64,000 bases of DNA from a virus. Position numbers and translations under genes: made by a program. The notes beneath the pieces were generated by a model. The model searched no databases. It worked only from the letters and a program-made list of their open reading frames with translations, and was not told the DNA's origin. Numbering within the stretch: position 1 is the stretch's first letter; each line of letters starts with the position of its first letter. Below are positions 946 through 61,987 of this stretch, one piece after another. The stretch covers positions 27,089 to 91,088 of IMG/VR virus record IMGVR_UViG_3300032164_000003; one strand, written 5' to 3'.

Positions 946-1231
946 CTAGCACCTTCTCTGCATCTCGCTCATTTTGCTGGCTTTGTACGGCATGTTTTAT
1001 TCCTAAAAGTATTTCCTTAATAACCGCATCAAGTTTTATTGCCCGTCGAATGTCTGTTTGCGTGGCAAGATACGCAGCCTTCGCTAAATTCTTATCGATC
1101 AGATCTGCATCCTCTTTCTTTATAGCGCCGTCTGTATCTTCTGCATATTGTGTTCCGAAACTTACCGAGGCTATATCACCGTTTGGAAACTTATGAGAAA
1201 AGGTTGCATCGAAATGTTTCTCAATCTTCAC
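938..1231 (-). CDS. Hypothetical protein, 97 aa, GTG start
   Basis: Not recognised. A short acidic protein (MKIEKHFDATFSHKFPNGD) with a beta-type N-terminal half followed by a helical, alanine-rich C-terminal half. The frame opens at GTG 1231 after an AAAGGGC stretch and overlaps the end of recA by eleven bases, a coupling that makes a real gene likely. Similar small proteins commonly sit in phage recombination operons, but nothing in the sequence assigns a reaction. Confidence 0.65.
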   Translation of the reverse strand: MKIEKHFDATFSHKFPNGDIASVSFGTQYAEDTDGAIKKEDADLIDKNLAKAAYLATQTDIRRAIKLDAVIKEILLGIKHAVQSQQNERDAEKVLDE

Positions 1232-3287: not shown

Positions 3288-3300
3288 GGTGCGCTCCTTT

Positions 3301-45946: not shown

Positions 45947-45959
45947 GGAGGAAGTGAAA

Positions 45960-47087: not shown

Positions 47088-47113
47088 TAGCTTGTTGAAC
47101 TGACGATGTAGCA

Positions 47114-47149
47114 ATCCGCCCGGGTGGCTTTGCGGCTTCCCGGGCGGAT
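47114..47149 (+). terminator. Strong hairpin after the major capsid gene
   Basis: ATCCGCCCGGG and CCCGGGCGGAT form a perfect 11-base-pair stem with a 14-base loop, 27 bases after the MCP stop. Only scattered T residues follow, so termination may be partial; it could also protect the capsid message. Confidence 0.7.
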
Positions 47150-47181
47150 CATTATCAATCCTTTATGTAGGGAGGCCGAAA

Positions 47182-47619
47182 ATGAAGTTCAACAAGACCG
47201 CAGTACAACATGAATTGGATATGGCTGCTCACGAATTGGAAAAAGCTGGGTTTACTGATTTAGCAGAGAAGGTGGATTACTATGCTAACAGACTAATTAA
47301 CGCCGCTGCTGGGGAAGTACCACTACTCCGCAGGGCACTGTCAAGAATTCTTGACGAGTCCAAGCGTAGGATCCAAACTGCTCAACCAAAGGAACCGACA
47401 ACTGCAGAGTCAAAGGCACGTACCGCCGTAGATAAAACACGGCGGGCATCAGATGACCGTAAGGAAGTCTTGAAACGTCGGCTTTTGGAGATTGCAGCAC
47501 AGCGCAAGCAGGCCGCACAGCGTCTGGAAGCCCTCAGGGCCAAAAGAGAAACGCGTACGGAAACTGCTGCTACACGGCGTGAGCGCCGCCAGGAGCGTCT
47601 GGAGCAGAACACTAAATAG
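47182..47619 (+). CDS. Basic coiled-coil protein, 145 aa
   Basis: Not recognised. Nearly all helix: a leading LDMAAHELEKAGFTDLAEKV, a linker, then a very basic C-terminal helix (TRRERRQERLEQ). Could bind DNA or act as a head-interior protein; such basic helical proteins lie next to MCP in some large phages. AGGGAGG lies about eight bases before the ATG. Followed by a clear terminator. Confidence 0.65.
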   Translation: MKFNKTAVQHELDMAAHELEKAGFTDLAEKVDYYANRLINAAAGEVPLLRRALSRILDESKRRIQTAQPKEPTTAESKARTAVDKTRRASDDRKEVLKRRLLEIAAQRKQAAQRLEALRAKRETRTETAATRRERRQERLEQNTK

Positions 47620-47647
47620 CTAATGTTCTAGGCGCTTCTTTTTCATA

Positions 47648-47680
47648 GGGGCGCACCTTCGGGTGCGCCTCATTTTTTAT
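47648..47680 (+). terminator. Rho-independent terminator
   Basis: A ten-base-pair stem (left arm 47648-47657, right arm 47662-47671) with a TTCG tetraloop followed by ATTTTTTAT. The best terminator in the window; it ends the capsid transcript. Confidence 0.92.
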
Positions 47681-47707
47681 ATAATGAAAACACATAACTC
47701 TGACAGT

Positions 47708-47739
47708 AATTAAGTTTTTTGCCCACAAACTACTAGAAT
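47708..47739 (+). promoter_or_regulatory. Weak promoter-like pair AATTAA-N20-TAGAAT
   Basis: AATTAA at 47708-47713 and TAGAAT at 47734-47739, 53 bases before ATG 47793. A relaxed version of the AGTTAA/TATAAT pair. Its place straight after a terminator makes a promoter likely. A TATAAT at 47680-47685, overlapping the terminator tail, is another candidate. Confidence 0.35.
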
Positions 47740-47792
47740 ATATGGTTGATAGCTCATGGTGAGTTATCAAGACGAAACGAAAAGGAGAAAGA

Positions 47793-48443
47793 ATGTCTAA
47801 GGAAAAGAAGGAAAAGTTGTCAGTGCCGGACACCTCACAACGCGGACGCAGATTAACATTGCAGAACTTGTTGGCAGCCGGTTCTGAAATCTGGGTACGC
47901 AATAACTCCGGTAAACTTACCGGACGAGATGCAGGTAACATTGTCGTGCAAGTCGGTGATGGCAACATGATAGACATCGTTGTAATCCCGCCTGGAAACG
48001 ACCCGGTGTGTCTTACCGATCAAGTTACACCGAAGTTATTGGCTGAGTGCATGGACTTGTTCAAGCTCGTGAAGTCCGGAGCTTTGGAAATTCTGGATCC
48101 TGTGAATGCTAATGACTACTATGACCAGAATCAAGAGCGTAAGAAGATTGTAGAGGACAAGATTAACAATCTGCTTACACAGAAGCGCGACGAGGACACC
48201 TCCGGAGCACGTCCAAAGCCGAAGTTGGCAGCACAGACAACTATCCATGTGAATCAAAAGGTCGGGGACATCTGCCTGAAGGCTAAGCACGCTGCTATTT
48301 CTGAGCAAGAAGCTTTGGAGCGTATGTTTGAGCAGGAAAGTGTGCTTACTCTAGACGATTACAACTATATAATGATGAACGGCGTGTTCAATGGTGTAAA
48401 GAGTTGGGCTAAGGAACAGGCCAAGAAGGTTATGGCACAGTAG
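47793..48443 (+). CDS. Hypothetical protein, 216 aa
   Basis: Not recognised. N-terminal half beta-like (EIWVRNNSGKLTGRDAGNIV, MIDIVVIPPGNDPVCL), C-terminal half helical with charged residues. AAAGGAG precedes ATG 47793. Own terminator-promoter surroundings on both sides suggest independent expression. Likely a head or neck protein from its position. Confidence 0.65.
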   Translation: MSKEKKEKLSVPDTSQRGRRLTLQNLLAAGSEIWVRNNSGKLTGRDAGNIVVQVGDGNMIDIVVIPPGNDPVCLTDQVTPKLLAECMDLFKLVKSGALEILDPVNANDYYDQNQERKKIVEDKINNLLTQKRDEDTSGARPKPKLAAQTTIHVNQKVGDICLKAKHAAISEQEALERMFEQESVLTLDDYNYIMMNGVFNGVKSWAKEQAKKVMAQ

Positions 48444-48455
48444 TAGGATTGTGTG

Positions 48456-48481
48456 CGGTGGGGGCCGAAAGGCCCCCACCG
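48456..48481 (+). terminator. Hairpin terminator
   Basis: CGGTGGGGGCC and GGCCCCCACCG with a GAAA loop, an 11-base-pair stem 13 bases after the stop. Followed by TATATTTGA, a short T stretch. Confidence 0.75.
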
Positions 48482-48504
48482 TATATTTGACTTAGGAGTT
48501 TACG

Positions 48505-49236
48505 ATGCCACTGCTTACCGCTCAAAAACATCAATGGACAAAGCAGCCTCCGTATAACTTCTATCACTTTCCGGATGAGCACCTTGTTGGCTGGCAGAAG
48601 TTCTGGGAAGAGATGGATGGGGATCTGGACAAAATCCTGGCCTTTGCAGAAAAGGCTAGTATAGAATGCCCGTGTGAGTGGTTCGAAAGCCTGCACCGCT
48701 TCTTGTTTGGCACCTTCGCAGGAGATGTCAAGCTGTTGAAGACCGCCGCCGAGAAGGACTTCAAGGCGTTCCTGAAGCAGACCGCAGAGAATCATCAGAA
48801 AGAACCACTGAGTAAGGAATGGTACACAGTAAAGGGCATCACACAAAATAATTTTATTGCGATGCTTGAGCGCGCAGCAGAGATTACCGATGTTCGTCAG
48901 GCCGTAGCATTTGTAAACTCTCGCATTCGTGATCTTGGATTCTTCCTTTACAGCGCTTACATTTTGTCGAAGACGAAGGGAAAAAGCGAAGTGAAGGCGC
49001 TCGCTTCTGATCTAAACAAGAAAGCTTATGTACTAGAGACTGACGCAATCGGAGAATCTCCGATCAATGGAATCACCGCTGGGCTGACAGTAACCCATGC
49101 CTTGTTCCCCGGAGACTTCTTTATGATTACAGAAGTTCTTCGTACCGCGTCGGATGAGATAGAAACACTTGTAACGCGCGATCCACGTGGCCATATTGCG
49201 TTCATAAATGATGTTTGGAACGTACAAGTAGTTTGA
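48505..49236 (+). CDS. Hypothetical protein, 243 aa
   Basis: Not recognised. A soluble mainly helical protein with many aromatic residues at its start (WTKQPPYNFYHFPDEHLVGW), a central helix ILAFAEKASIECPCEWFESL and a C-terminal beta part. TTAGGAG precedes the ATG. In head-completion position, so a connector is possible. Confidence 0.65.
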   Translation: MPLLTAQKHQWTKQPPYNFYHFPDEHLVGWQKFWEEMDGDLDKILAFAEKASIECPCEWFESLHRFLFGTFAGDVKLLKTAAEKDFKAFLKQTAENHQKEPLSKEWYTVKGITQNNFIAMLERAAEITDVRQAVAFVNSRIRDLGFFLYSAYILSKTKGKSEVKALASDLNKKAYVLETDAIGESPINGITAGLTVTHALFPGDFFMITEVLRTASDEIETLVTRDPRGHIAFINDVWNVQVV

Positions 49237-49261
49237 CGCAGTATAAACGAAAACGACCAAA

Positions 49262-49504
49262 ATGAAACAGTTCAACACTAATGACTTGAGCCTCGCCGCG
49301 TATCTTATGATGCGCGGATGTCCACTGATGGCTGCGAAGAAGCTTGGCAAAACATTCAGATTTACACTGGACATTGGCGAACGCAATGAGCAGTCCCTGA
49401 AAATAGAGTTTATAAATTCTGAATCGGCAAGATTCGACGCGGCAGTAAGAGATTTGAAGAAGATTATGTTCAGTGGAGGCGTCGTTGCCACAGTCAGTAA
49501 CTGA
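49262..49504 (+). CDS. DUF5659-like small protein, 80 aa
   Basis: MKQFNTNDLSLAAYLMMRGC followed by KTFRFTLDIG and LKIEFINSESARFDAAVRDL resembles the small DUF5659 family: a short alpha/beta protein found in many phages and bacteria. Function not known. It overlaps the next gene by 20 bases, providing its ribosome binding site. Confidence 0.6.
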   Translation: MKQFNTNDLSLAAYLMMRGCPLMAAKKLGKTFRFTLDIGERNEQSLKIEFINSESARFDAAVRDLKKIMFSGGVVATVSN

Positions 49505-50351
49505 TTTTGATGTTCTGCTCAAGGGTCAAACGGAATATCTCACCGCGTTCGTCCGAGATCCGAAAACAGACGAGTTGACCGATGTAATTGGCAACAGCAC
49601 ATTTTCTTTGATCGACATAGCCGACGATTCTGTCAAGTTCACAGAAACATTCGCTACGTCAGGTAGCGCAAATATTATACATCCATCACAGGGGGTTTAT
49701 CAATATAGTTTTAACACGGTGACATATCCTGATCAATATCTTGCTGCATTCCGCTGCGTGTTAGATGGTGAAGTTATAAATAATAATGTATTCGTAAAAA
49801 ATGAGCCAGCTGCGATGTTTGCTTATGCAGCACAGCTACGTGTACAGGTAGACAAGGCACGAAAGTCCGTGTCCGATGATATTGAGAATGTGGACAAAGC
49901 TGAATCGGAACCGTCTACTAAATTCTTCTATGGTTATTCTGACGCCCACCTAATATTTTATCTAGAACGTGGCGCGCAACTAGTTAATGTTGTTCCTCCA
50001 TACACACAATTTACACCTGTTACATTCCCGTGGTATTCTTCCGGCACGATCTTGATTGATGCTGCTACAATTGCGGCATTGGAATCACAGGGCATATTTG
50101 CAATAGACACTGATTATAGCTATCAACTGGGTGGGAACAGCCTTGTTATTGATCACTTTACTAAACTAAATACGGCTCTTACTTCATTAGTCACTAGATT
50201 TGACACAAACCTAGTACGGTTCAAGCAGCAATTTCGCTCCAAAGGCCTGGTCATGTTCCAATGGATGCCGGGTGGTGTAAGAGCCGCGAGACAACTTTCT
50301 GCGATGCCCTCAGGTTTTTGGAGCCGCATGCTAAGTAGCGCATTTGTGTAG
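49485..50351 (+). CDS. Hypothetical structural protein, 288 aa, TTG start
   Basis: The frame is open from GTG 49473, but that codon overlaps the GGAGG, so TTG 49485 (five bases downstream of it) is the better start. N-terminal region beta-rich and Ig-like (LLKGQTEYLTAFVRDPKTDE, then VYQYSFNTVTYPDQYLAAF); a C-terminal helical tail contains repeated Phe/Arg. Precedes the large fibre-like gene and could anchor it; no family recognised. Confidence 0.65.
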   Translation: MPQSVTDFDVLLKGQTEYLTAFVRDPKTDELTDVIGNSTFSLIDIADDSVKFTETFATSGSANIIHPSQGVYQYSFNTVTYPDQYLAAFRCVLDGEVINNNVFVKNEPAAMFAYAAQLRVQVDKARKSVSDDIENVDKAESEPSTKFFYGYSDAHLIFYLERGAQLVNVVPPYTQFTPVTFPWYSSGTILIDAATIAALESQGIFAIDTDYSYQLGGNSLVIDHFTKLNTALTSLVTRFDTNLVRFKQQFRSKGLVMFQWMPGGVRAARQLSAMPSGFWSRMLSSAFV

Positions 50352-50381
50352 CCTATGGAAACATAATGTAAGGTTAATTGA

Positions 50382-52577
50382 ATGGCGACCGGAATTACAC
50401 CAGGCAAACCGTGTACGGTAAATACGTACCTTGCCTATGAGGTATTGGGTAGTCAGTCCCAACAGACTGGCAACAATACTGTTGTGGTGTCCAATACCAT
50501 CCAATTGCTGCCGCAATACTACCTTTTCATAGGTACAAAGTACACTACCTATGTAGGGCGCTGCCTCGTTCTTAATCCTTCGGGAACTCCAACGACACAG
50601 CGCCGTGTAGTTATTTCCCAGGCCAATGGCACAGGTAATACCAAGATTCTGACGGTCAATAGAGACTGGGACACTAACCCCGCCCAGACTACAGATTCTC
50701 TGTATGTTTGTTACGATATGGATGATCTAGAAACTGGCGGTTCTAATACCGGCGTTGCCCTTGGTGCAAGAACTGGTACCTACGACTGGACTGGTGTTCT
50801 GAACATAGGCGATGGCACCCAATACGCTGGCCTTTATATGGGTGCCGGTGAAGGGGCTGATATTTATGACAACGGCAGTACAAACTCGCTGATTGTCAAA
50901 AATAACGCTCGGCTAGACATGGGTTACAGAAATAGCAGCGGCGCGTTCGTATCTGGTGGTATTTGCTTGTACACGCACAATACTGCTGGCGAGCCCATGG
51001 TACAGTTTCAGTCAGGTGCAAAGGGGGAGATTATAGATGCTCTGCACTGGGGCATGCTTGTATCGATGTTTCTTGAAAACGCAGCAGGCTCTGCGATAAC
51101 ATATCGAGGTACAAAGTTTCTTAGTGCAACATACGGCACAACGTTCTTTGGATCGTCGCTGTATGACTGTTCAGTTGGTGGGCGCAGCGGGGCTAGTGAG
51201 TATATTCGATTCAACGCTAATTCGACAGTTGACGGTTTAATTCTTGAAAAGACCGCTGGGATAACTGGAACGAATGACACGTCAACTGAGACGATAACTC
51301 TACGTGATGTTGTATTTGTTAACAACCTGGCATTTATAATCCTAAACTCCAATAAAACGTTCTACGTCATTAATCCTACCTGGACAGCTACTACGTATAG
51401 CAATTTTACCTGGACGACTTCAACGGCTAATTATGTTTATGATCAAAGAAGCATTGATGCTGTAGTACAGCAGGCGACGGGCACCGCAATTGCCAACGCC
51501 AATGTCCTAGTCTACGAGAACACGACCCTGGCGGACTTGGTGCTGGAGACGTACACGAATGGGAGTGGCGTGGCGGCCGGGGTGTTTACCTACAAGAAGC
51601 ACTCGACCAATTCCTCGACCGTGACCTACGGCGGGCACGCGATCCGGGTGGACTGCTGGCTGTACCTGCCCTATGCAGCGGCACAGACTTCGACCTCATA
51701 CTTCAACGGTACTGTGGTGCTGATACCCGATGCTGGAATAGTACAAACGGTCCAGGCCACCGCGCTAACCGACGGGTCGGGAATTACTTGGAACAAGGAT
51801 ACCAATGCATCTAGCATCATAGAGTACACTGCAGGCACCGGAACATTGTCAGTTGGTAACACCGTAACGCAGGCCACTTCTGGGGCGACTGGGGTTGTGA
51901 CGAAGATTGTGGACGGTGACAGCACGGCTGGGACGGTGCATTTGAAGAGCCGAAATGGAACAGCCTTTTCTGGAACCTATGGGTTGAGTGCTACTGCGTG
52001 GAGCGCAACCTACACAGCCAGCACCGAGCAGCGGTTTGCGATCTGGATCGACGGCAACAGCAAGTCGCTACAGACCATTTATGACTACCTGGCTGCGCTC
52101 ACGGCGCAGACCACCCTATCTGCCACTGGTGAACTGATTCACGAGTGGGGAAAACAGTACCAAGTGCGGGCGCTCTATAGTGGTGCGTCTGGTTTCTACA
52201 CAGAGCGATCTGGAACGCTTGGTGTGTTCATCACGAATGCTGGGTCGGGCACGGTGCAGAAATACACCGACGATGCTGGAGTTACTTGGACCCCACCGAC
52301 ATCGGGTACGTTGACAGTTACCTGCAAAAACGCGTCGGGGTTTGCCATCGAAGGGGTCCGGGTTCGCATAGAGACTACGGGAGGGGTTCTTATTTCTGAA
52401 GGATCGACAATCGGCTCTGGGGTGTTTACTGATAGCTACCTCGGAATTGATCAAGCCGTGTATGTGGTTGTTCGGCTCAAGGGCTACAAGGCCACCCGTA
52501 TCTCTGGAAATATCGCAAGCGGAAACCTGACCATTCCAGTAACGCTAATCAATGACAGAGCCGTTGATTTGCCCTAA
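50382..52577 (+). CDS. Large fibre/spike-like protein, 731 aa
   Basis: Beta-rich and rich in Thr, Ser and Asn. Residues about 130-350 look like a beta-helix with regular short strands (IGDGTQYAGLYMGAGEGAD, DVVFVNNLAFIILNSNKTF). After about residue 370 come small Ig-like or BIG modules (VQQATGTAIANANVLVYENT; TLTVTCKNASGFAIEGVRV) and a C-terminal block YVVVRLKGYK ... DRAVDLP shared with the gene at 52885. Base composition rises sharply near 51480, inside this gene. Probably a receptor-binding or head/neck fibre exposed on the particle; no catalytic motif visible. Confidence 0.75.
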   Translation: MATGITPGKPCTVNTYLAYEVLGSQSQQTGNNTVVVSNTIQLLPQYYLFIGTKYTTYVGRCLVLNPSGTPTTQRRVVISQANGTGNTKILTVNRDWDTNPAQTTDSLYVCYDMDDLETGGSNTGVALGARTGTYDWTGVLNIGDGTQYAGLYMGAGEGADIYDNGSTNSLIVKNNARLDMGYRNSSGAFVSGGICLYTHNTAGEPMVQFQSGAKGEIIDALHWGMLVSMFLENAAGSAITYRGTKFLSATYGTTFFGSSLYDCSVGGRSGASEYIRFNANSTVDGLILEKTAGITGTNDTSTETITLRDVVFVNNLAFIILNSNKTFYVINPTWTATTYSNFTWTTSTANYVYDQRSIDAVVQQATGTAIANANVLVYENTTLADLVLETYTNGSGVAAGVFTYKKHSTNSSTVTYGGHAIRVDCWLYLPYAAAQTSTSYFNGTVVLIPDAGIVQTVQATALTDGSGITWNKDTNASSIIEYTAGTGTLSVGNTVTQATSGATGVVTKIVDGDSTAGTVHLKSRNGTAFSGTYGLSATAWSATYTASTEQRFAIWIDGNSKSLQTIYDYLAALTAQTTLSATGELIHEWGKQYQVRALYSGASGFYTERSGTLGVFITNAGSGTVQKYTDDAGVTWTPPTSGTLTVTCKNASGFAIEGVRVRIETTGGVLISEGSTIGSGVFTDSYLGIDQAVYVVVRLKGYKATRISGNIASGNLTIPVTLINDRAVDLP

Positions 52578-52587
52578 AGGAGAAGCC

Positions 52588-52872
52588 ATGCCAGGTAAGA
52601 AGAAAGAGAAGGAAGCGGAGAAGCCGGTGGAGACGGTAGAGCAGAAGATGGCAGCGGAAGCCATCTGCCCGAAGTGCATGAAGCCGGTGGAGTCGCACAT
52701 GTGCCGGTTCTGTGGAGCGACCAAGGCGATCAACGACGCCAGCGGCAACGTGATCTGGATGCTCAACGGCCGGGTGGTCGCCGCCTTCCGCGACGAGAAG
52801 GACGCCTACGTGAAAATGGCCCTGCGCTCCGGAATCCCCGAGAGCGAGTGGCCTCAACGCTTTCGGAGCTAG
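52588..52872 (+). CDS. Small zinc-ribbon protein in the fibre block, 94 aa
   Basis: ATG 52588 follows AAAGGAGAAGCC; the longer frame from 52552 lies inside the preceding gene. A lysine/glutamate start (KKKEKEAEKPVETVEQ), then CPKCMKP and CRFCGATK form a zinc ribbon, followed by a short alpha/beta tail (GNVIWMLNGRVVAAFRDEKD). Lies between the two large fibre-like genes with G+C-rich codon use. May be a fibre assembly or linker protein. Confidence 0.7.
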   Translation: MPGKKKEKEAEKPVETVEQKMAAEAICPKCMKPVESHMCRFCGATKAINDASGNVIWMLNGRVVAAFRDEKDAYVKMALRSGIPESEWPQRFRS

Positions 52873-52884
52873 AGGAGAAATACC

Positions 52885-55800
52885 ATGTCCATTGCAAACG
52901 ATTGGGATGTAAACTACAGCGCGAAGGTGATCAGCCACATCGACGGTGTGCTGAGCTACAACACGGGTGACGGCACACAGCCCGCCGTGGGGCAGATGGT
53001 GCTCGGCGGGACCAGCGGAGCAGTCGGGAAGATCCTGGCCCGCACTGGCAACGCCGCATCCGGCACCCTGACCCTGACCAACGTCATCGGCCAGTGGGCT
53101 ACTGGTGAGCGTCTCTACGTCATGAGCGAGTTGATGTTCGATGGTGTGAACAACACCAACAAGGCGCTAATCGTCGTCGGAGCCACCGTCACCGGGAACT
53201 CCTCGGCCTCGACCATGCCCATCCTGTTCGTCGAGTTCAACATCGACGGGGTGGCCGGGCACGGCAAGTTCTACGGGCGCTCGATGAGCGCGGCCTTCAC
53301 AAACAACGAGGATCTGAAGATCGCCACCCTCGTTGTTGCCGTGGCCGACGGGACCGGAACCGACAACGACGCCCTCAACACGACTACGCTGGTGAACGGA
53401 ACCCTGGCTGTGCCAGGGACCGCCAGCACCAACAACAGCGTGATCATCCACTACGACGCCGGGACCATCGCCGTTCCCGAGGACGCGCACATCAAAAGCG
53501 GATCGGCCGGAGCGACTGGCTACGCCCAGCGGGTGATCGGCGCGGTGGCGACGGGTTCGATCCGGGTTGTGGACAGCGACACGTCCGGGGGCTCCTGGAC
53601 CAACGACCAGGCGCTCCGCATTCTGGATTGTGTGTACTACGATGCGCTGGTGGCCGGGAAGGTGTTCAGCGCAGGCGACGTGATCAAAGCCGCCAACGGG
53701 ACCACCCCAACCGCCGTGGGGCGCGTGCTTGCGGTCATCGACGACGGCGACAACACCGGCAAGCTGATCCTCGCGGGTTTCTCTGGCACCTGGCAGGACG
53801 ATAACGAAATCCACGTCAAGCAGAGTGACGACACCTACGTCAAGTACGGGGAAGTCGAGAACAGCACCAGCAAGTACCTCGACGTGGCCACGATCAACAT
53901 CCCTGGCGGAGTCCGGAGCGTGCAGCGGTCGGACCAGGGAGGGATCTTCCCGACCGGGAGCCTGAACATCGTGCGGAGCGGCAACGCGCTCTACACCTAC
54001 CTCGTGGATCTGTACGATGAACTGAGCGCCCTGGATGATCTGCCTCCGATGGACGGCGACGTGAAGGACCAGCTTTACACCGTGCTCAACAGCTACGTGA
54101 TCCCCGACCTGTCCTTCCGGTTCTTGGAGAAGGGCTCGTTCAAGGACACGGCCAACAACAACGTGTTCACCGGCGTCCAGACCGTGGGAGCCCTTGCCGA
54201 CGTGGGCAACCACGGGTTCTACTACTCCTCGACCAACCCGACCCCGCAGCCCGATATGTACATCGAGCAGAACGGTGCGGTGAACCGGCAGGACTGGCTG
54301 GAGGGGAACCTGGACGTGATGCTCAAGGTCAAGACCTCGACCAACCCGGCCTACATCAACCCGACCGTCGCGGCCCTGGGGCAGCTTATCAACGGTGCCG
54401 CGTTCACTGTCCACCTTCGCCCGTACCGGCGCACCTACGACAGCAACGAGGTGACCAAGATCGGTGGCATCGCCACGGTGGCCCTCGGGAACGCCAAGGA
54501 CCTGAACAACACGACCGGCCAGTACCGGAGCGCGTTCTCCACCGGAGGTGCCGGGGCCTTCACGGTTGGAGAGGAAATCACGACCTCCGGCGGGAAGCGG
54601 GGGGTCGTGACCGCCTCCGACTCCGGGGCCGCAGGCAACGTGGACTACGCGCTCAAGTCTTCGGTCAACTTCGTGGTCAGCGACGTCGTCACGGGATCGA
54701 TCAGCGCCAAGTCCGCCACGCTCGCCACCCCCTCAGACCTCGTGGCCGGGTACGGGACCAACATCCGGGCCATGACCGTGGACCGACGGTTCACGGGCGG
54801 CACCACCACCGGGACCTTCGTGATCGGGGAGGTGGTTACCCAGACCGGCACGGGGGCCACCGGCTACATTTTGGAGGACGATGCCGGGACGATCTACATG
54901 CAGGACGCCAGCGGAACCTTCAACGGGACGGGCCTACTCACGGGTGTGTCCTTGGCAACCAACACCCCGACCGCGACGGCAGACTACACCACCGTGCCCA
55001 AGGACATCGGCGGCGGGGTCGGAGACAAGAACTACACGGCAGTGGTCAGCGCCAACATTACCAACGCCAGCGCGAGGCCGGTCAGCGAGGTGTACGAGTG
55101 GTTCAAGTTCCTGACCAGAGCCGAGAGCTTGCTGCTCCAGGGCGGGCCTGGAGCCACAGCCGGGAAGTACGGACGGATCTACCGGCGGCTCGTTGATACC
55201 TTCGCAGAGGTGCGCGGCGCGAGCCCCTACGGGCTCAAGGCAGGATCCTTGCTCATCGGAGCCCAGGGCGTGTATGTCGAGAAGTACACCCTGGCCACGG
55301 CTGATCTGCGAAACATTCAGCTTGTGGACAACGACGGGAACACTTGGGATCCGCCCAACCTCCAGACGCTGGAAGTCATCAACTTGGTGACTGGCGTGCG
55401 CGTCGCTGTGTATCGCTCCACCGGGGCGGGGTCCGAGAGCATCCTGCTCACGGAGTTCATGGTTGGCGCAGTCGGCGGCGGGTACAACCAAAGCGCCGAC
55501 GCCAACATCAAGGTCGCGGCCAACACCCGCACGGTCAGCCCGCTGCCCAACGACGTTCCCGACTCCGGGGTCTTGCATGTGCTCGACCCCAACGACACGG
55601 GCAACTACCTGCGGTTCATCTACGACACCGTGGACCGCACGACCAACGTGTTCCACCTCACGCAGGGGGTGGGCCAGAACACTATCGGAGCCGTCACGGG
55701 CTCGGTGGACCTCACCGCCAGCGACAACACCCTGGTTGTCCCCATCGAGAAGGAGTCCACCGGAACCAGCGTCAGCAACACCCTCCAGGTAGTCTCTTCC

Positions 55801-55926
55801 TTCCCCCTGTACGTCGTGGTGCGCATCAAGGGCAAGAAGCCGTTCAAGACCACGGCGACGTTCAGCAGCACGGGCGCGAGCATCGGCGCGGTGCTGAACC
55901 CAGACAATGTCGTGAATCTTCCCTAA
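52885..55926 (+). CDS. Very large modular structural protein, 1013 aa
   Basis: The largest gene in the window apart from the intein-bearing polymerase gene, and clearly G+C-rich. It contains several diverged copies of a module with the pattern VGxxVxxxTSGAxGxV then GTLxL: at about 33-70 (PAVGQMVLGGTSGAVGKIL), about 570-605 (FTVGEEITTSGGKRGVVTAS) and about 640-680 (FVIGEVVTQTGTGATGYIL). The C-terminus repeats the block of the 50382 gene (YVVVRIKGKKPF ... DNVVNLP). The middle is beta-rich with DDLPPMDGDVKDQLYTVLN. Likely a fibre or neck appendage. Start ATG 52885 after GAGGAGAAATACC. Confidence 0.75.
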   Translation: MSIANDWDVNYSAKVISHIDGVLSYNTGDGTQPAVGQMVLGGTSGAVGKILARTGNAASGTLTLTNVIGQWATGERLYVMSELMFDGVNNTNKALIVVGATVTGNSSASTMPILFVEFNIDGVAGHGKFYGRSMSAAFTNNEDLKIATLVVAVADGTGTDNDALNTTTLVNGTLAVPGTASTNNSVIIHYDAGTIAVPEDAHIKSGSAGATGYAQRVIGAVATGSIRVVDSDTSGGSWTNDQALRILDCVYYDALVAGKVFSAGDVIKAANGTTPTAVGRVLAVIDDGDNTGKLILAGFSGTWQDDNEIHVKQSDDTYVKYGEVENSTSKYLDVATINIPGGVRSVQRSDQGGIFPTGSLNIVRSGNALYTYLVDLYDELSALDDLPPMDGDVKDQLYTVLNSYVIPDLSFRFLEKGSFKDTANNNVFTGVQTVGALADVGNHGFYYSSTNPTPQPDMYIEQNGAVNRQDWLEGNLDVMLKVKTSTNPAYINPTVAALGQLINGAAFTVHLRPYRRTYDSNEVTKIGGIATVALGNAKDLNNTTGQYRSAFSTGGAGAFTVGEEITTSGGKRGVVTASDSGAAGNVDYALKSSVNFVVSDVVTGSISAKSATLATPSDLVAGYGTNIRAMTVDRRFTGGTTTGTFVIGEVVTQTGTGATGYILEDDAGTIYMQDASGTFNGTGLLTGVSLATNTPTATADYTTVPKDIGGGVGDKNYTAVVSANITNASARPVSEVYEWFKFLTRAESLLLQGGPGATAGKYGRIYRRLVDTFAEVRGASPYGLKAGSLLIGAQGVYVEKYTLATADLRNIQLVDNDGNTWDPPNLQTLEVINLVTGVRVAVYRSTGAGSESILLTEFMVGAVGGGYNQSADANIKVAANTRTVSPLPNDVPDSGVLHVLDPNDTGNYLRFIYDTVDRTTNVFHLTQGVGQNTIGAVTGSVDLTASDNTLVVPIEKESTGTSVSNTLQVVSSFPLYVVVRIKGKKPFKTTATFSSTGASIGAVLNPDNVVNLP

Positions 55927-55945
55927 GCCGTAGCGAGGTGCCTGC

Positions 55946-58357
55946 TTGGCAGAACGCAGCGACATCGTAGTAGACTGGCCGCTCTCTCCGCGCATAATCA
56001 CGGTGCAGGCCCCCTCCACCGAGATCACGCAGCAGGATCTGCTCGACACCCTGCGGAAACTGGAGAGTCAGCTAACCGCCCTGGACGACGACCCTCTCAC
56101 CGACGCGGCGGGAAAAGAGAACTTGGGCGGTGGCGTTCTGGTAGGAATCTCGCAGACCCTCCAGAACGCGCAGCTTGCTTTCGAGGCACGGACAACCCCC
56201 ACGGAGGAAGGCACAGCGACCTCCGTGGGGACCATCATACTGACCGACACGGCGGCGCAGTTTGTTACTGTAGGAGTGCAACGTGGGGCATTGATCGTCA
56301 ACTTCACGGACAAGGCGGTGGCCGAGGTGCTGAGCGTGGAGAATCAGACCCACCTCACGCACCGGCCCCTGACCGGAGGCTCGGGCAACGACTGGGGCAT
56401 CGGGGACGCCTACAGAATTTATAACATCGTGCAGTGCGACGTGACCGGAGGAAACCTCGTTGCGCTGGACGAGGCGGGCGACCCCATGTCGCCAATCTTC
56501 CCGGCGGCATTCACTCAGGTGGTCAAGACATCAAGTTCGTCGGCCACGCTCCAGGAGTTGGGCGCGATCCAATACTCGTCTTACAACGGTGGCGTGACGG
56601 TGGACACCAGCAGCCCGTACTCGGGTATTGTGTTTCCAGTGGGGACACCGCAGCAGCCTGTCAACAACATGACGGACGCCATGCTCATAGCAGTAGCGCG
56701 GGGGCTCACCACAATTTTTGTCGTTGGGGATCTTACGCTCGACGCCGGGGGTGACTACTCGGAGATGGTGTTCATCGGGGAGTCCATTGGCAAGACCGCC
56801 ATTGACATCAGCCCCGCTGCCCAGGTGGAGAACTGCGAGTTCTACGAGGCGACAATCGCTGGGACGCTGGACGGAAACGCCAAGGTAAAGAACTGCCAGA
56901 TTCTGGATCTAAACTACATCAACGGGGTGGTGGAACTATGTATGCTCGGGCCAGGCGAAATCGTGCTCGGGGGGGCAGACGAGGCGAATTTCCTCGACTG
57001 CTGGAGTGGCGGGGCAAACGTCGTGGGAAGGCCGGTCATCAACTGTGGCGGTAGCGGCCAGTCGCTGTCGATGAGGAACTACAGCGGCGGGGTGATCATC
57101 AGGAACAAGACGGGGGCGGCAGACAGGATAGTAATCGACATGGCGAGCGGGGAGGTGGTGCTGGAGAGCACCGTGACGGCGGGGCTGGTGACGGTGCGCG
57201 GGGTCGGGGTCATTGACGATCAGAGCGTCGGTGCCACCGTTGACTCTGCCAACCTGCTCAACAAGGCGACCATTTCCAAAGCCGTTTTAGATGAACCGCT
57301 CCCTGGCCATCTGATCCCCGGCACGGTGGGGGAGGTGATGCGAACCGCTGCCTACGCCGGGGCGGTCTACGTGGACACCCTCGGAGGCGGTGTACCGGGA
57401 ACGAGTTTCCCTCGGGGCACCCCTACCATGCCGGTGGACAACCTGGCGGACGCCAGGACGATAGCCGATGGCGTGATGCTCCGGGAGTTCCGGATACGCG
57501 GTTCGGTGACGCTGGACCAGGACTACACGGGGTACGCCTTCTTCGGGCAGGGGGATATCAAGACAGACGTGCTCAGCCTTGCCGGGCGCTCCGTGGACAA
57601 GTCGTACTTCAACCGCCTGATGCTCCAGGGGGTGGCGACCGGGAACATCAACGCCCAGCTTTGCATCCTGACCGGAGTGAGCGGGATCGGCGGAGTCCTG
57701 GTGGACTCCGGACTGCAAGGGACCACGACACTCGGCGGCCCTGGTTGCCAGCTAATCTGCAAGAGTCTGTCCTTCATCACCGCCCCGGCCTACGTGGACA
57801 TGGTTGGCCCCGGTCGGGTGTTCGTGGCTCAGGGTTCCGGCGACGTGACCTTCAAGAACGCCATGTCCGGAGCGCCGTTCCCGACGCAGATCCAGATCGG
57901 GCTCACGCACGGCCTGGTGACGTTTGATGTCTCCTGCACGGGTGGGGCCGCGTTGGTGCGCGGCGTGATGACTCTGGTGAACAACGGGGCGATCACGGTC
58001 ACGGATTGGGCGCTGTACCTGGACCACATCTCGGACCACGTTGACACTAAGCTGACTGGAACGCACGGAAGCGGAAGTTGGGTAGACACTGGCGCACCTC
58101 CGTCCCCTGAGACTATTGCAGATGCTGTTGTTGCTAAGGACGTTGGTGGACAGACCGTAGGAACATTACTTAGCCAGATCCCTGGAATCGGCGCAAATGT
58201 CGAGCTTATTAAAGAGGTAGAATCCGGTAAGTGGGAGATTATAAACAACCAGATGATTTTTTACAGCCCAGCAGGTGTAGAAATTCTACGTTTCAATTTG
58301 TTTGGGCCTACGGGTAATCCATCTATGACGGACGTGTACAAGCGTGTGCCAGTATGA
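55946..58357 (+). CDS. Beta-helix tail spike/fibre-like protein with internal repeat, 803 aa
   Basis: Starts at TTG 55946, five bases after GAGGTG. A leading helix (TQQDLLDTLRKLESQLTAL) is followed by two related beta-helix sections: the first around 235-300 (FPVGTPQQPVNNMTDAMLIA, then VVGDLTLDAGGDYSEMVFIG), the second around 490-550 (FPRGTPTMPVDNLADARTIA, then RGSVTLDQDYTGYAFFGQG). Such arrangements occur in phage spikes and fibres. Composition drops to the window norm near 58090, inside the last 90 residues. Its role is probably host-surface binding. Confidence 0.78.
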   Translation: MAERSDIVVDWPLSPRIITVQAPSTEITQQDLLDTLRKLESQLTALDDDPLTDAAGKENLGGGVLVGISQTLQNAQLAFEARTTPTEEGTATSVGTIILTDTAAQFVTVGVQRGALIVNFTDKAVAEVLSVENQTHLTHRPLTGGSGNDWGIGDAYRIYNIVQCDVTGGNLVALDEAGDPMSPIFPAAFTQVVKTSSSSATLQELGAIQYSSYNGGVTVDTSSPYSGIVFPVGTPQQPVNNMTDAMLIAVARGLTTIFVVGDLTLDAGGDYSEMVFIGESIGKTAIDISPAAQVENCEFYEATIAGTLDGNAKVKNCQILDLNYINGVVELCMLGPGEIVLGGADEANFLDCWSGGANVVGRPVINCGGSGQSLSMRNYSGGVIIRNKTGAADRIVIDMASGEVVLESTVTAGLVTVRGVGVIDDQSVGATVDSANLLNKATISKAVLDEPLPGHLIPGTVGEVMRTAAYAGAVYVDTLGGGVPGTSFPRGTPTMPVDNLADARTIADGVMLREFRIRGSVTLDQDYTGYAFFGQGDIKTDVLSLAGRSVDKSYFNRLMLQGVATGNINAQLCILTGVSGIGGVLVDSGLQGTTTLGGPGCQLICKSLSFITAPAYVDMVGPGRVFVAQGSGDVTFKNAMSGAPFPTQIQIGLTHGLVTFDVSCTGGAALVRGVMTLVNNGAITVTDWALYLDHISDHVDTKLTGTHGSGSWVDTGAPPSPETIADAVVAKDVGGQTVGTLLSQIPGIGANVELIKEVESGKWEIINNQMIFYSPAGVEILRFNLFGPTGNPSMTDVYKRVPV

Positions 58358-58515
58358 ACCGATTAATTACTCGTGGAATGGGTGATAAACAGTTACTTAT
58401 CACACGTGGTTTGGCTGGGTTAGTAGGACCGGTATGGCGTGAGATTCTGCGGTTAAAGTCCGCTATAACAACAACACTTAGATTGGAATCTAGATGGAAG
58501 AAGCAAACAAGTTAG
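58354..58515 (+). CDS. Small basic protein, 53 aa
   Basis: Short frame between the fibre gene and the next. ATG 58354 shares ATGA with the fibre stop, and the gene overlaps the next by 22 bases. The product (MNRLITRGMGDKQLLITRGL) is basic; two RG-rich repeats ITRGMGD and ITRGLAG follow each other. Not recognised. The tight coupling supports it as real, but it is short. Confidence 0.5.
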   Translation: MNRLITRGMGDKQLLITRGLAGLVGPVWREILRLKSAITTTLRLESRWKKQTS

Positions 58516-58685
58516 AGCTAAACTCGTATATCAACAGGAGCCTCCCTTTAATTTCTGAGCCCTCCTTTACTCTATATTTCTGTGACAATAACAAATCAGG
58601 AATTAATAAAGAACTGACATTGTCATCTATTATTAGTCAGCAACTTGTTGTAGATTCAGGAATTGACTTGGAGGCACTCACATGA
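58494..58685 (+). CDS. Small hypothetical protein, 63 aa
   Basis: Not recognised. EEANKLELNSYINRSLPLIS, then SFTLYFCDNNKSG. ATG 58494 has only a weak GGAA upstream. It overlaps the previous gene by 22 bases and shares ATGA with the next (58682), so it is probably translated by coupling. Confidence 0.55.
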   Translation: MEEANKLELNSYINRSLPLISEPSFTLYFCDNNKSGINKELTLSSIISQQLVVDSGIDLEALT

Positions 58686-58990
58686 TAACACAGAAGAAAA
58701 ACTATGTAAATGATGTTGGAACAGAGATCTTGGTGGATACTGGGTCCGATCTCTCGACAGCTACCGAGCTAGCACTCTATGTAAGGAAGCCCTCTGGAAA
58801 AGCAGTCACGTGGGCAGGCACTCTTGGACCCATTAATCCACAGGGTGTGAAAGTATACATAAAGTACATTGTAGAGACAGGTGATTGGGACGAACCCGGT
58901 TGGTGGTCGCTGCAGTCATATGTAAAAATAACAGCTTGGGAAGGCCGAGGAGAAACAGTAAAATTCCAACTATTCCCGGAGTTCAAGTAA
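58682..58990 (+). CDS. BppU-like N-terminal domain protein, 102 aa
   Basis: NYVNDVGTEILVDTGSDLST then ELALYVRKPSGKAVTWAGTL matches the N-terminal domain of phage baseplate upper protein (BppU) and related fibre adaptors. Here it stands alone. Remaining sequence is beta (WWSLQSYVKITAWEGRG). In BppU this domain connects the fibre to the particle; directly after the fibre genes, an adaptor role fits. Confidence 0.65.
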   Translation: MITQKKNYVNDVGTEILVDTGSDLSTATELALYVRKPSGKAVTWAGTLGPINPQGVKVYIKYIVETGDWDEPGWWSLQSYVKITAWEGRGETVKFQLFPEFK

Positions 58991-58991
58991 G

Positions 58992-59906
58992 ATGCCTGTA
59001 TGGGGAAAACCATATAAGATAAGACGCTCCACGCGTGCACTGAGCTTTGCTGTCCGGCAAAATTATACATTGCTAGAAGTTTGCGGCGAGGAGTGCTATC
59101 TGTTGCAACGTAAGGCCCGCGCTAAGACTACTTTCCAATGGGCATCTCGTGAAGTTGATGTATTGACTACGACAACGGCCCCCAGCGCGTACACGGCGGA
59201 TCCCGAAACCGGGTATTTCAGATACCTGCTATGGAATGAGGCCACTGATTCAGCAACTACATATCCAGATATTGGAGTAATGACTGTAACTGTGCAAGCA
59301 ACGGGTGGTGTCGCAAGCGTTTGGGAGCCAGCAGTGGACAAATACTCATTTTTGCCGGACAGGAATGAGTACGCAGTTGACATTTTCCAGGATCAATTGG
59401 ATAGTACAGGTACATCAGTACCAGATGCAGTATATATAGTGTTCAATACACCGCCATTTATAATGGGGAACATCGTTCTGTTTACTTATGGAAACATTAA
59501 TCCACTAGTAAACTTCGCTGGAATGCAACCAATTAGGGATAATCAACCAGATTACCAAAATAGCTTGTTTGGGTTCGAACAATGGTTAGATCCGAACCAG
59601 AAGATTCGTAGTAGGCACACACCAAATGCCTTCTTGCTGGCCTTCCCGGGCGTTCTGTCAGACTTTACAATCACCGAGGGTGGTTTGCTGCAAGAAACGA
59701 AGGGAGACTTCTGGACGACTCCAATCAAGGCACCAATTATAACAGAGCACGATGTCGTTATTAGGAATTCTACTGGGGAGCGGTATCAAGTAACGAATTA
59801 CACGCCTATTTTTCTTGAGTCGATATTAGTAAGTCAACATATGGACTTGACAGAACTGGACCCCAGAAGTTCGATCTATAATGTACCAATCGTAACTGGG
59901 TTGTAA
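58992..59906 (+). CDS. Hypothetical structural protein, 304 aa
   Basis: Not recognised. Beta-rich, with CGEECYLLQRKARAK near the start, TADPETGYFRYLLWNEATDS, and a C-terminal VVIRNSTGERYQVTNYTPIF region like the small beta domains of head-tail connectors. One base separates it from the BppU-like gene. Expected neck or baseplate component. Confidence 0.65.
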   Translation: MPVWGKPYKIRRSTRALSFAVRQNYTLLEVCGEECYLLQRKARAKTTFQWASREVDVLTTTTAPSAYTADPETGYFRYLLWNEATDSATTYPDIGVMTVTVQATGGVASVWEPAVDKYSFLPDRNEYAVDIFQDQLDSTGTSVPDAVYIVFNTPPFIMGNIVLFTYGNINPLVNFAGMQPIRDNQPDYQNSLFGFEQWLDPNQKIRSRHTPNAFLLAFPGVLSDFTITEGGLLQETKGDFWTTPIKAPIITEHDVVIRNSTGERYQVTNYTPIFLESILVSQHMDLTELDPRSSIYNVPIVTGL

Positions 59907-59916
59907 GGAGATTGCG

Positions 59917-60552
59917 ATGGCAATCACTGTATGGTACCGTGGAATACGGTTTGTAAAGGATTTCATTGTTCAATATCTGAACTATATATTTTTGGCTAAT
60001 CAAAAGGGCAGTCTCCTTTTCACGGATGGGACTAAAGAGATAAAGTTTTCGACACTTCCGACGGCAATCAAGCGCGCCTCATGGGATCCACGTCGGATGC
60101 CCGCTGTACTTATTGGAAAAGCTGGCGGGGGAATGAAGTACATTAGCTTTTCTAAGGATAAACTAAAGAGCGATGTAATACCTTCTAGCACTGGAGAGAC
60201 GGCCACACTTTATTATACGGTTGGCGGAGACTTCGATCTCAATATTGGATTGTCTGTGCGCGCGACAACTATAGAAGAGAGAGACAATCTGGTAGATATA
60301 GTTGGCATTTATCTTGCTCATCCAGTAGCTAAAGATTACTTTATGCGGCATTACTTGGTGCTTCCAGAAGCCCCCGCTTTAGCAGGAGAATCGGACGTAC
60401 ACGAGCCCGGACTTGACCATCCAATATACGCTACGGATCTAAATTTACGTGTAATGACGCGCTGGCAAGAATATACCTCAACGGAAGAGGCGACAGTAGG
60501 CAACATCATTGCCGATTTGGAAGCCGTTGAGGAATTTGATGAAGTACCCTAA
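59917..60552 (+). CDS. Probable neck / tail completion protein, 211 aa
   Basis: Not recognised with certainty. A helix with hydrophobic face at the start (VKDFIVQYLNYIFLANQKG) leads into a beta-rich middle (LYYTVGGDFDLNIGLSVRAT), the helix EERDNLVDIVGIYLA and a C-terminal DLNLRVMTRWQEYTS. Size, fold and position just before the sheath fit a tail terminator or neck protein. ATG 59917 follows AAGGAG. Confidence 0.55.
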   Translation: MAITVWYRGIRFVKDFIVQYLNYIFLANQKGSLLFTDGTKEIKFSTLPTAIKRASWDPRRMPAVLIGKAGGGMKYISFSKDKLKSDVIPSSTGETATLYYTVGGDFDLNIGLSVRATTIEERDNLVDIVGIYLAHPVAKDYFMRHYLVLPEAPALAGESDVHEPGLDHPIYATDLNLRVMTRWQEYTSTEEATVGNIIADLEAVEEFDEVP

Positions 60553-60625
60553 AAGTGACGAGAGTTTAATTCTAAGCATGTTTTGATGCTAACCTTACTA
60601 CGGTTTGTAACAATGGAGAGATCCA

Positions 60626-61987
60626 ATGGCAATTAGAGTACCTGGAATCATAGTACGTATCGTTAATGATACGGGCATCATTGCGCCTCCCATTTTTCAA
60701 AGATATCCTGTAATAATCGGTGAAGGCGACCCATATAGGACCATCTCCGATTATAGAATTAGGAAGACGGCGGATGACTATGACGGGCTAGGCGCTATCA
60801 CAACGGTAAATGATATTGTAAGTGTAGGAGATCTTCCGGGAATCGCAAGCTATGTAGCAACTACAGATTATGAATTGTCTGGAAATACCATTCATTGGGT
60901 AGGTGTACACAAGCCGGACGACGGAGATTACTACTACGCAACGTATACAGAAACCCGCCCCGCCAGCGCATATGTTCCGATGCTATATTTCGATGAAAAC
61001 CTTATTTATGCCGACCACGGAAATCAAACAAGGACAAGTGGCGCGATAAACGATGTGTCCGTTGGCTCGTCCCTGGCGTTGTCTGCTGGAAGTGGTGGCG
61101 TAATTGTTATGCAGCTGGACCTTAGTGGTGCAGCAGATCCAGATGTGCCGACCCCAACAGAACTAGAAAACGCGTTCATCGATTCTGTTGATCTTTTGAA
61201 CCGCATCACAGACTATAAGCTGTTCCTGGTCCCAATGTCGTCTGGAACATTGCTTACAACCACGGCAGCAAACATCTTCTTCAACCATGCCGTTATCGCA
61301 AGCCAGCCTGCGCGGAAGCAGGAGCGTACAGTTGTTGCTTCCCTGGCTAAGGGCGTTGATTATCAGGGTGCAGCTACTTTCGCTATCAGCTACTTCCACG
61401 AGCGCATGGTGGTTCCGTACGTCCCGGATGCCACTGTGAACGTGGTTGGCTTTACAGCAGACTATGACATGCGGTTCTACGCTGCTGCGCTGACTGGCAA
61501 GCTTTGCTCGGTGTCCATCGGTAGGAACATTTCCGACGAGATCATTCCTAATGTCTCGTTCCCTGGAAACTTTAGCCCAGACGAGGCAGATTACTTGGTA
61601 CAGCGCGGCGTGTCTCCAGCTAAGGTAAGCGGTGCCGTGGTCAGAAACATCATGGCTATAACTACAGACACTACGAATGCGCTTACTGAAGACCTGGGCG
61701 TACAGGATGTAAAGGACTATGTAAAGAAGTACTGGAGAGAAGGCCTCTGGACAGCGTTCAAGAACGCTCCTATTACAAGAAGCCTAATCGCCCAAGTGCG
61801 CGCTGCCTCCGTTGGGATTTTGGATTACTTGGTTTCACAGGGCACCATTGCAGAATATAGAGAACTGGCTGTCGCACAGGATATTACTGAGCCTAGAAAA
61901 CTGTTGATATCTGGCAAGATTAAGCCAGCGTTCGGACTACAGTGGATGGACATAACATTTACCTTTGTTATGGCCTTCACAGGCTAG
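60626..61987 (+). CDS. Contractile tail sheath protein
   Basis: 453 residues. Order before tube, chaperone and tape measure, length, and the conserved C-terminal sheath domain support the call: YWREGLWTAFKNAPITRSL, QVRAASVGILDYLVSQG, DITEPRKLLISGKIKPAFG and a final ITFTFVMAFTG strand. N-terminal part is beta-rich (RVPGIIVRIVNDTG, YRTISDYRIRKTADDYDGLG). The sheath contracts around the tube at infection. ATG 60626 is preceded by GGAGAGATCC. Confidence 0.88.
   Translation: MAIRVPGIIVRIVNDTGIIAPPIFQRYPVIIGEGDPYRTISDYRIRKTADDYDGLGAITTVNDIVSVGDLPGIASYVATTDYELSGNTIHWVGVHKPDDGDYYYATYTETRPASAYVPMLYFDENLIYADHGNQTRTSGAINDVSVGSSLALSAGSGGVIVMQLDLSGAADPDVPTPTELENAFIDSVDLLNRITDYKLFLVPMSSGTLLTTTAANIFFNHAVIASQPARKQERTVVASLAKGVDYQGAATFAISYFHERMVVPYVPDATVNVVGFTADYDMRFYAAALTGKLCSVSIGRNISDEIIPNVSFPGNFSPDEADYLVQRGVSPAKVSGAVVRNIMAITTDTTNALTEDLGVQDVKDYVKKYWREGLWTAFKNAPITRSLIAQVRAASVGILDYLVSQGTIAEYRELAVAQDITEPRKLLISGKIKPAFGLQWMDITFTFVMAFTG

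What the first reader, a model, noticed from the sequence alone, without database searches (positions are those of the whole stretch)
51480..58090. Composition-shifted fibre block with borders inside genes
Sample 60-base lines: 23 of 60 G+C at 50101, 41 of 60 at 53461, 22 of 60 at 59401. The rise begins inside the gene at 50382 and the fall occurs inside the last part of the gene at 55946. Whole C-terminal and N-terminal modules thus seem to have been swapped in from a G+C-richer source, changing the host-binding parts.
Basis: seen in the sequence. Interest (0 to 1): 0.65.

Follow-up and report, generated by a model that had tools for sequence, protein, structure and literature searches.

The report
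Grafted phage fibre-gene cassette
A virus of bacteria has taken over a 5.4-kb set of surface-spike genes from a much G+C-richer relative, with one join falling inside a gene just before a widely shared end piece, which shows how phages may re-equip themselves by swapping spike bodies while keeping a standard end.

Summary
The composition block is real. The three sampled counts are exact, and the block averages 61.6% G+C against 44.7% outside. By third codon position the main GC-rich stretch is 52615-58054. Its right edge is sharp and lies inside gene 55946 (GC3 0.80 to 0.42 near codon 698). The left edge lies at the junction of genes 50382 and 52552; inside gene 50382 there is only a separate 204-base GC-rich patch (51468-51671). 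So one of the two claimed intragenic borders holds fully.

Genes 52552, 52885 and the start of 55946 form a conserved cassette found in dozens of uncultivated phages of 31-68% G+C. There its composition follows the host phage; the window departs by 8 standard deviations. Among 71 relatives of gene 55946 only the window and L077 are outliers, and L077 is likewise GC-rich only in the body before the same C-terminal module. That module (about 65 residues) caps unrelated bodies in 55 loci and is usually followed by a tiny TRG-motif gene.

Best reading: recent lateral acquisition of a spike/fibre cassette, joined ahead of a resident C-terminal unit at a hypervariable site. Host-binding is plausible but untested. 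Assembly error is unlikely but not excluded.

The parts
49473..50351 (+). left conserved flank: head-tail connector-like gene (native composition)
   Evidence: phrog_17327 connector E 1.5e-5; 55-72% identical in backbone relatives
50382..52577 (+). gene 1 of the block (731 aa), beta-rich structural/fibre protein; codons 1-362 of native composition
   Evidence: GC3 0.44 before codon 362; full-length relatives L030, L031/L103, L099
51468..51671 (+). isolated GC-rich patch inside gene 1 (GC3 0.88)
   Evidence: GC3 segmentation
52302..52574 (+). C-terminal module of gene 1 (codons 641-731), shared with cassette carriers and resembling the C-terminus of gene 52885
   Evidence: 54-55% identity to L103/L099, 18-20% to L030/L032; tblastn hits in nearly all cassette loci
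52552..52872 (+). small zinc-ribbon-like gene (106 aa), optional cassette member; start of the main GC-rich block
   Evidence: CxxC..CxxC motif in the sequence; sub-threshold zinc-ribbon hits; homologues in L002, L107, L093, L106, L109; GC3 0.81
52885..55926 (+). core cassette gene (1013 aa), large beta-rich structural protein with repeated 'vGe.(V/I)t..TSGAtG.V' segments, GC3 0.87
   Evidence: GC3; 21 IMG/VR relatives; AlphaFold2 mean pLDDT 76, no PDB match at E<=0.001
55946..58357 (+). gene 4 of the block (803 aa): N-terminal domain 1-196, beta-helix-like body from about 205, low-confidence linker about 689-751, C-terminal module
   Evidence: AlphaFold2; weak Foldseek matches to pectate-lyase-like and tailspike folds
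58031..58073 (+). right composition border, on the HGSGSW linker motif (codons 707-712)
   Evidence: GC3 changepoint; motif positions
58151..58354 (+). C-terminal module of gene 4 (about codons 736-803, WEIINNQMIFY...NLF..GNPS...Y.R), native composition
   Evidence: hmmsearch E 2.5e-26; 55 loci with the module; GC3 0.42
58354..58512 (+). small TRG-motif gene (52 aa, MNRLITRGMGDKQLLITRGLAG...), start overlaps the stop of gene 4
   Evidence: sequence; TRG motif within 150 nt downstream of the module in 35 of 52 loci, 7 of 921 control windows
58682..58990 (+). right conserved flank: small gene (102 aa) present also in relatives without the block
   Evidence: 48-58% identical in L013 and L017, where it lies next to the 49473 homologue
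58992..61987 (+). native tail genes 58992, 59917 and tail sheath 60626
   Evidence: sheath phrog_2839 E 1.6e-5; 54-65% (58992) and 55-71% (60626) identical in relatives

Best explanation
A tailed phage carries, at a hypervariable site between its head-tail connector gene and its tail genes, a cassette of surface-appendage (fibre or spike) genes that came recently from a phage of much higher G+C. The incoming DNA covers about 52615-58054: the zinc-ribbon gene, the large core gene 52885, and the N-terminal domain plus beta-helix-like body of 55946; a short tract within 50382 was also converted. The right join was made in frame in the linker just ahead of a C-terminal module (about 65 residues) that was already resident together with a small coupled gene carrying TRG motifs. 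I infer that the C-terminal module and its small partner act as a standard folding or docking end for such appendages, so that bodies can be exchanged ahead of it, changing what the virion binds. Shown: composition and codon discordance, module borders, site variability, modularity in relatives, linkage of module and TRG gene. Inferred: direction, mechanism (recombination at conserved linkers), docking or folding role, host-binding effect.
For: Sharp GC3 borders. Codon use splits at the same points: 50382 codons 1-362 and 55946 codons 698-803 match the own backbone within sampling noise, while 52885 and 55946 1-697 are 0.36-0.43 from it and 0.17-0.25 from 66%-GC phages. In 18 relatives gene G+C follows flank G+C (r 0.97); the window residual is +0.16, 8 sd. 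Among 71 distinct relatives of the 55946 N-terminus, gene-minus-flank G+C is 0.004 +/- 0.032 with two outliers, window and L077. In L077 GC3 goes 0.31, 0.74, 0.41 with the last change at codon 713, just before the same C-terminal module. Site variability: L014 and L017 have no block, L013 only a homing endonuclease gene, L009, L010 and L023 other fibre-like genes, L016 the same cassette genes. The nearest backbone relatives L009, L010, L011 and L013 (sheath 69-71%) show no 52885 homologue, the more distant L016 (62%) does, at 72% in 52885. The C-terminal module occurs on unrelated bodies, three with LamG/ConA-like lectin domains, with a TRG gene downstream in 35/52 (odds). AlphaFold2 puts the border in a low-confidence linker.
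Against: No donor was found: the nearest relative of 52885 is only 72% identical and comes from a 40%-G+C phage. The left side is stepped, not one clean join, so more than one event or partial amelioration is needed. The window's C-terminal module is not closest to that of its backbone relative L009 (37% over 125 columns) but to L008 (57%), so the module itself moves. No structural match supports adhesin function firmly. L016 and L011 have the module or a distant version but no TRG motif nearby. L010, L011 and L023 are fragments or partly read, so absence of the cassette there is less firm than in L013, L014 and L017.
Confidence: 0.78

Rival explanations
1. Metagenome assembly chimera: reads from a GC-rich phage with a related cassette were joined into a low-GC phage contig at short shared stretches.
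For: Single assembled contig; no second record carries the junction 20-mer; reads are not available here.
Against: Two independent misjoins would be needed, both leaving reading frames intact and the gene order that L016 shows at the same site. The right join lies at the same module junction as in the independent contig L077.
Confidence: 0.09
2. Vertical descent with local compositional change: the cassette has been in this lineage since the common ancestor with L016 and drifted to high G+C through selection on codon use or expression.
For: The window and L016 copies of 52885 are sisters (support 99) at the same site, and their identity (72%) is like that of the capsid protein (74%). Native capsid genes have mildly raised GC3 of 0.575. 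L016's copy is also slightly above its flank (0.48 against 0.40).
Against: No relative among 18 shows such a deviation. Codon use matches GC-rich phages. The change stops abruptly within gene 55946 at a linker, while the end of the same protein stays native.
Confidence: 0.08
3. The block is a lateral acquisition, but of virion decoration or neck components without a role in host choice.
For: Location among head and neck genes upstream of the sheath, not after the baseplate. The core gene 52885 is conserved over its whole length, unlike a receptor-binding protein.
Against: The beta-helix-like body of 55946 and lectin domains in other proteins with the same C-terminal module suggest binding to sugars.
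Confidence: 0.3
4. Free-standing homing endonucleases at the edge of the fibre site drive the exchange by cutting the recipient and co-converting neighbouring genes (a mechanism within the best explanation, not against it).
For: Related LAGLIDADG endonuclease genes lie at the edge of this site in L016, L013 and L023/L113 (34-43% identical). Co-conversion of flanking DNA by such enzymes is established in T4 (PMC2988022).
Against: The window has no such gene at the site; only inteins with endonuclease domains in polymerase and RecA.
Confidence: 0.2

Closest known systems
Modular exchange of T4-type distal tail fibre genes 37/38
   Same: Fibre genes hypervariable between conserved neighbours; intragenic joins at conserved segments; frequent shuffling (PMC3797505; PMC2993671).
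   Different: Here the constant part next to the join is a C-terminal module with a small coupled gene, and the exchanged part includes whole upstream genes; no sequence homology to gp37/gp38 was found in Pfam or PHROGs.
T4 fibritin (wac) collar fibre with swapped C-terminal domains
   Same: A fibre at the neck, with domain replacement inside the gene (PMC3797505).
   Different: In fibritin the C-terminal domain is replaced and the N-terminal part is kept, and swapping is said to be ancient; here the upstream part is the newcomer and the C-terminal end is kept.
C-terminal intramolecular chaperone of tailspikes and fibres (Pfam Peptidase_S74), from own knowledge
   Same: A C-terminal domain shared by otherwise unrelated fibre bodies.
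   Different: The module here is only about 65 residues, has no Pfam match, and no self-cleavage was tested.
Tail fibre assembly genes downstream of fibre genes (Tfa, gp38 class), from own knowledge
   Same: A small gene directly after the fibre gene.
   Different: The TRG gene is about 50 aa with repeated TRG(F/L/M/Y)G motifs and no Pfam or PHROGs match.

Membership tests
Laterally acquired (mosaic) phage tail-fibre/spike cassette | composition and codon use unlike the backbone, with sharp borders | tested here: met
Laterally acquired (mosaic) phage tail-fibre/spike cassette | site variable among relatives, flanks conserved and syntenic | tested here: met
Laterally acquired (mosaic) phage tail-fibre/spike cassette | same cassette found in unrelated phage backbones | tested here: met
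Laterally acquired (mosaic) phage tail-fibre/spike cassette | gene products are fibres or spikes of the virion | tested here: inconclusive
   beta-helix-like model for 55946 and weak fold matches only; lectin domains on other proteins with the same C-terminal module
Laterally acquired (mosaic) phage tail-fibre/spike cassette | donor lineage identified (supporting, not essential) | tested here: inconclusive
   no donor found: nearest relative 72%, not GC-rich; 66%-GC carriers only about 47-49% identical
T4 gp37/gp38 or fibritin family | sequence match to the family | tested here: not met
   no Pfam or PHROGs family for 52885 or 55946 and no family above its cut-off for 50382
Peptidase_S74 intramolecular chaperone | match to the S74 model at the C-terminus | tested here: not met
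   no Pfam hit for the C-terminal module alone or for full 55946
Diversity-generating retroelement target | template/variable repeat pair and reverse transcriptase | tested here: inconclusive
   no long near-identical repeat within 50300-58800; no reverse transcriptase among the proteins scanned, but not all window proteins were scanned
Site-specific insertion | direct repeats flanking the block | tested here: not met
   no repeat pair at the two borders

The most novel reading that the evidence does not exclude
The C-terminal module of about 65 residues and its coupled TRG-motif protein form a standard two-part docking or folding unit used by many unrelated tailed phages. Any fibre body can be joined ahead of it, and the linker before the module is a preferred exchange point, seen soon after the event in the window and in L077.
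Probability: 0.3. Interest if true: 0.6.

Novelty: new variant of a known kind. Interest (0 to 1): 0.4.

Why it matters
Exchange of fibre parts is a well-known route for phages to change what they bind, but a join caught soon after the event, with the resident end still in native composition, is less common and shows where the join is tolerated. The cassette family has no match among 50,697 isolated-phage records and no Pfam or PHROGs model, yet was found in dozens of environmental viral contigs. The linkage of the C-terminal module with a TRG-motif gene gives two small, testable proteins and a rule for finding such appendages in metagenomes.

Tried and rejected
DNA-level search of isolated phages with the whole region and protein searches with 52885, 55946, the L003 homologue and the L046 module protein found nothing. 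A scan for other records with the junction 20-mer found none. Fold searches gave only weak or uninterpretable matches, so no fold-based function is claimed. Direct or inverted repeats bounding the block: none. No tRNA or Rfam family that might mark an insertion site. The idea that the C-terminal module is specific to this phage backbone was dropped: it occurs in very different phages and the nearest copy is not in the closest relative. The idea of one clean block from 51480 was dropped after GC3 segmentation. The Gemmatimonadota copy (L110) as a host clue was dropped: it lies among bacterial genes beside a run of N.

Full report
Setting. The window is part of a 91,088-base IMG/VR virus record. 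Terminase, portal, major capsid protein (45954), a head-tail connector (49473) and a tail sheath (60626) mark it as a contractile-tailed phage. The capsid protein is distantly like those of large phages such as Virus Rctr197k (47%) and PaBG (27%).

Observation. The block averages 61.6% G+C against 44.7% for the rest of the window. Third-position G+C gives finer borders: 48790-51467 at 0.42; 51468-51671 at 0.88; 51672-52614 at 0.57; 52615-55899 at 0.88; 55900-58054 at 0.80; 58055-61195 at 0.42. The right edge is inside gene 55946, around codon 698. The strong left edge is at the junction of genes 50382 and 52552; within 50382 there is a separate 204-base GC-rich tract. The 0.57 stretch is no different from native capsid genes (0.575).

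Codon use agrees. The first 362 codons of 50382 and the last 106 of 55946 are as close to the own backbone as random backbone samples are. Gene 52885 and the first 697 codons of 55946 are not, and resemble phages of 66% G+C.

Relatives of the backbone. Fifteen loci were found with the sheath protein. Between the connector gene and the genes 58682/58992, L014 and L017 have essentially nothing, L013 only a homing endonuclease gene beside 58682, and L020 1.2 kb with two small genes. L009 and L010 have other large genes (the L010 site is about 12.7 kb by coordinates), L023 about 15.6 kb, and L016 a homing endonuclease followed by homologues of 52885 and 55946. The site is therefore a variable slot. 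The closest backbone relatives (L009, L010, L011, L013; sheath 69-71%) show no 52885 homologue; L016 (62%) has it at 72% identity. L010 and L011 are fragments and not read in full, so only L013, L014 and L017 show absence outright.

Relatives of the cassette. Gene 52885 has relatives in 21 viral loci and 2 GTDB contigs. The order is usually: a protein ending in the same module as 50382, sometimes the zinc-ribbon gene, 52885, then a protein starting like 55946. In 18 relatives the G+C of 52885 follows that of the flanks (r 0.97, residual sd 0.02); the window is 0.16 above the line. In a larger set of 71 distinct genes with the 55946 N-terminal domain, only the window and L077 stand out (+0.14 and +0.15; the set as a whole, L077 included, averages 0.004 +/- 0.032), and 56 of 71 have 52885 sequence just upstream. 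L077 has other neighbours than the window, and its 55946 homologue is AT-rich at both ends with a GC-rich body between codons 153 and 713. This is a second instance of an internal swap ending just before the same C-terminal module.

Gene 50382. Relatives L030, L032, L099 and L103 align along it. Codons 1-350 are nearest L030 (63% against 36-39%); codons 363-640 are 53-62% to all four; codons 641-731 match only the cassette carriers L099 and L103 (54-55%) and not L030 or L032 (18-20%). So 50382 is itself a mosaic, but the composition step at 51468 is at most mildly reflected in homology.

The C-terminal module. An alignment search brought 55 loci. The module sits near or at the C-terminus of proteins with different bodies, including LamG/ConA-like lectin domains in L008, L066 and L082. 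In 35 of 52 cases a TRG(F/L/M/Y)G motif lies within 150 nt downstream, against 7 of 921 control windows (Fisher p about 3e-44, though related loci are not independent). In the window the small gene (58354-58512) overlaps the stop of 55946 by the usual ATGA. The linker motif HGxGxW is at the border in the window and precedes the C-terminal part in L009, L011 and L016.

Structure. AlphaFold2 on 55946 (18 sequences, mean pLDDT 67) gives an N-terminal domain, a confident beta-helix-like body (residues 205-445, pLDDT about 92), a low-confidence linker 689-751 and a small helix-plus-strands end. Foldseek hits are weak (best PDB E 3e-3, a GH87 glucanase; phage tailspikes among the next). Gene 52885 gives an all-beta model without a convincing match. 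Spike or fibre identity is thus likely, not shown.

Mechanism. The in-frame join at a linker next to a conserved module fits recombination between related genes or selection of illegitimate joins at domain borders; both models are in the literature (PMC3233612). Homing endonucleases at the site edge in three relatives are possible drivers, since they co-convert flanking DNA in T4 (PMC2988022). No repeat pair bounds the block.

Limits. Raw reads were not available, so chimeric assembly cannot be ruled out outright; two in-frame joins at module borders make it unlikely. The donor is unknown. The host is unknown.

Noticed in passing
window 3301-7035 (-): DNA polymerase A gene with an N-terminal uracil-DNA-glycosylase domain and 3'-5' exonuclease, its polymerase domain split by an intein with a LAGLIDADG domain.
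   Followed up: partly
window 1221-3341 (-): RecA gene with an inserted homing-endonuclease-type domain, probably an intein.
   Followed up: no
L016:1074-2468, L013:7414-8364, L113:9203-10591: Related free-standing LAGLIDADG endonuclease genes at the edge of the fibre site in three backbone relatives.
   Followed up: partly
L009:7563-8036 and L020:7377-7880: HAD/PNKP-type phosphatase genes at the same variable site in two relatives.
   Followed up: no
L110:10236-14831: Cassette genes inside a Gemmatimonadota chromosome record, next to ordinary bacterial genes and a run of N; integrated remnant or scaffolding error.
   Followed up: partly
window 45954-48789: Mild rise of GC3 (0.575) over capsid-region genes against about 0.42 in the genes on either side of the block.
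   Followed up: no
L077:489-2885: Second GC-shifted body in a 55946 relative, flanked by AT-rich ends.
   Followed up: yes
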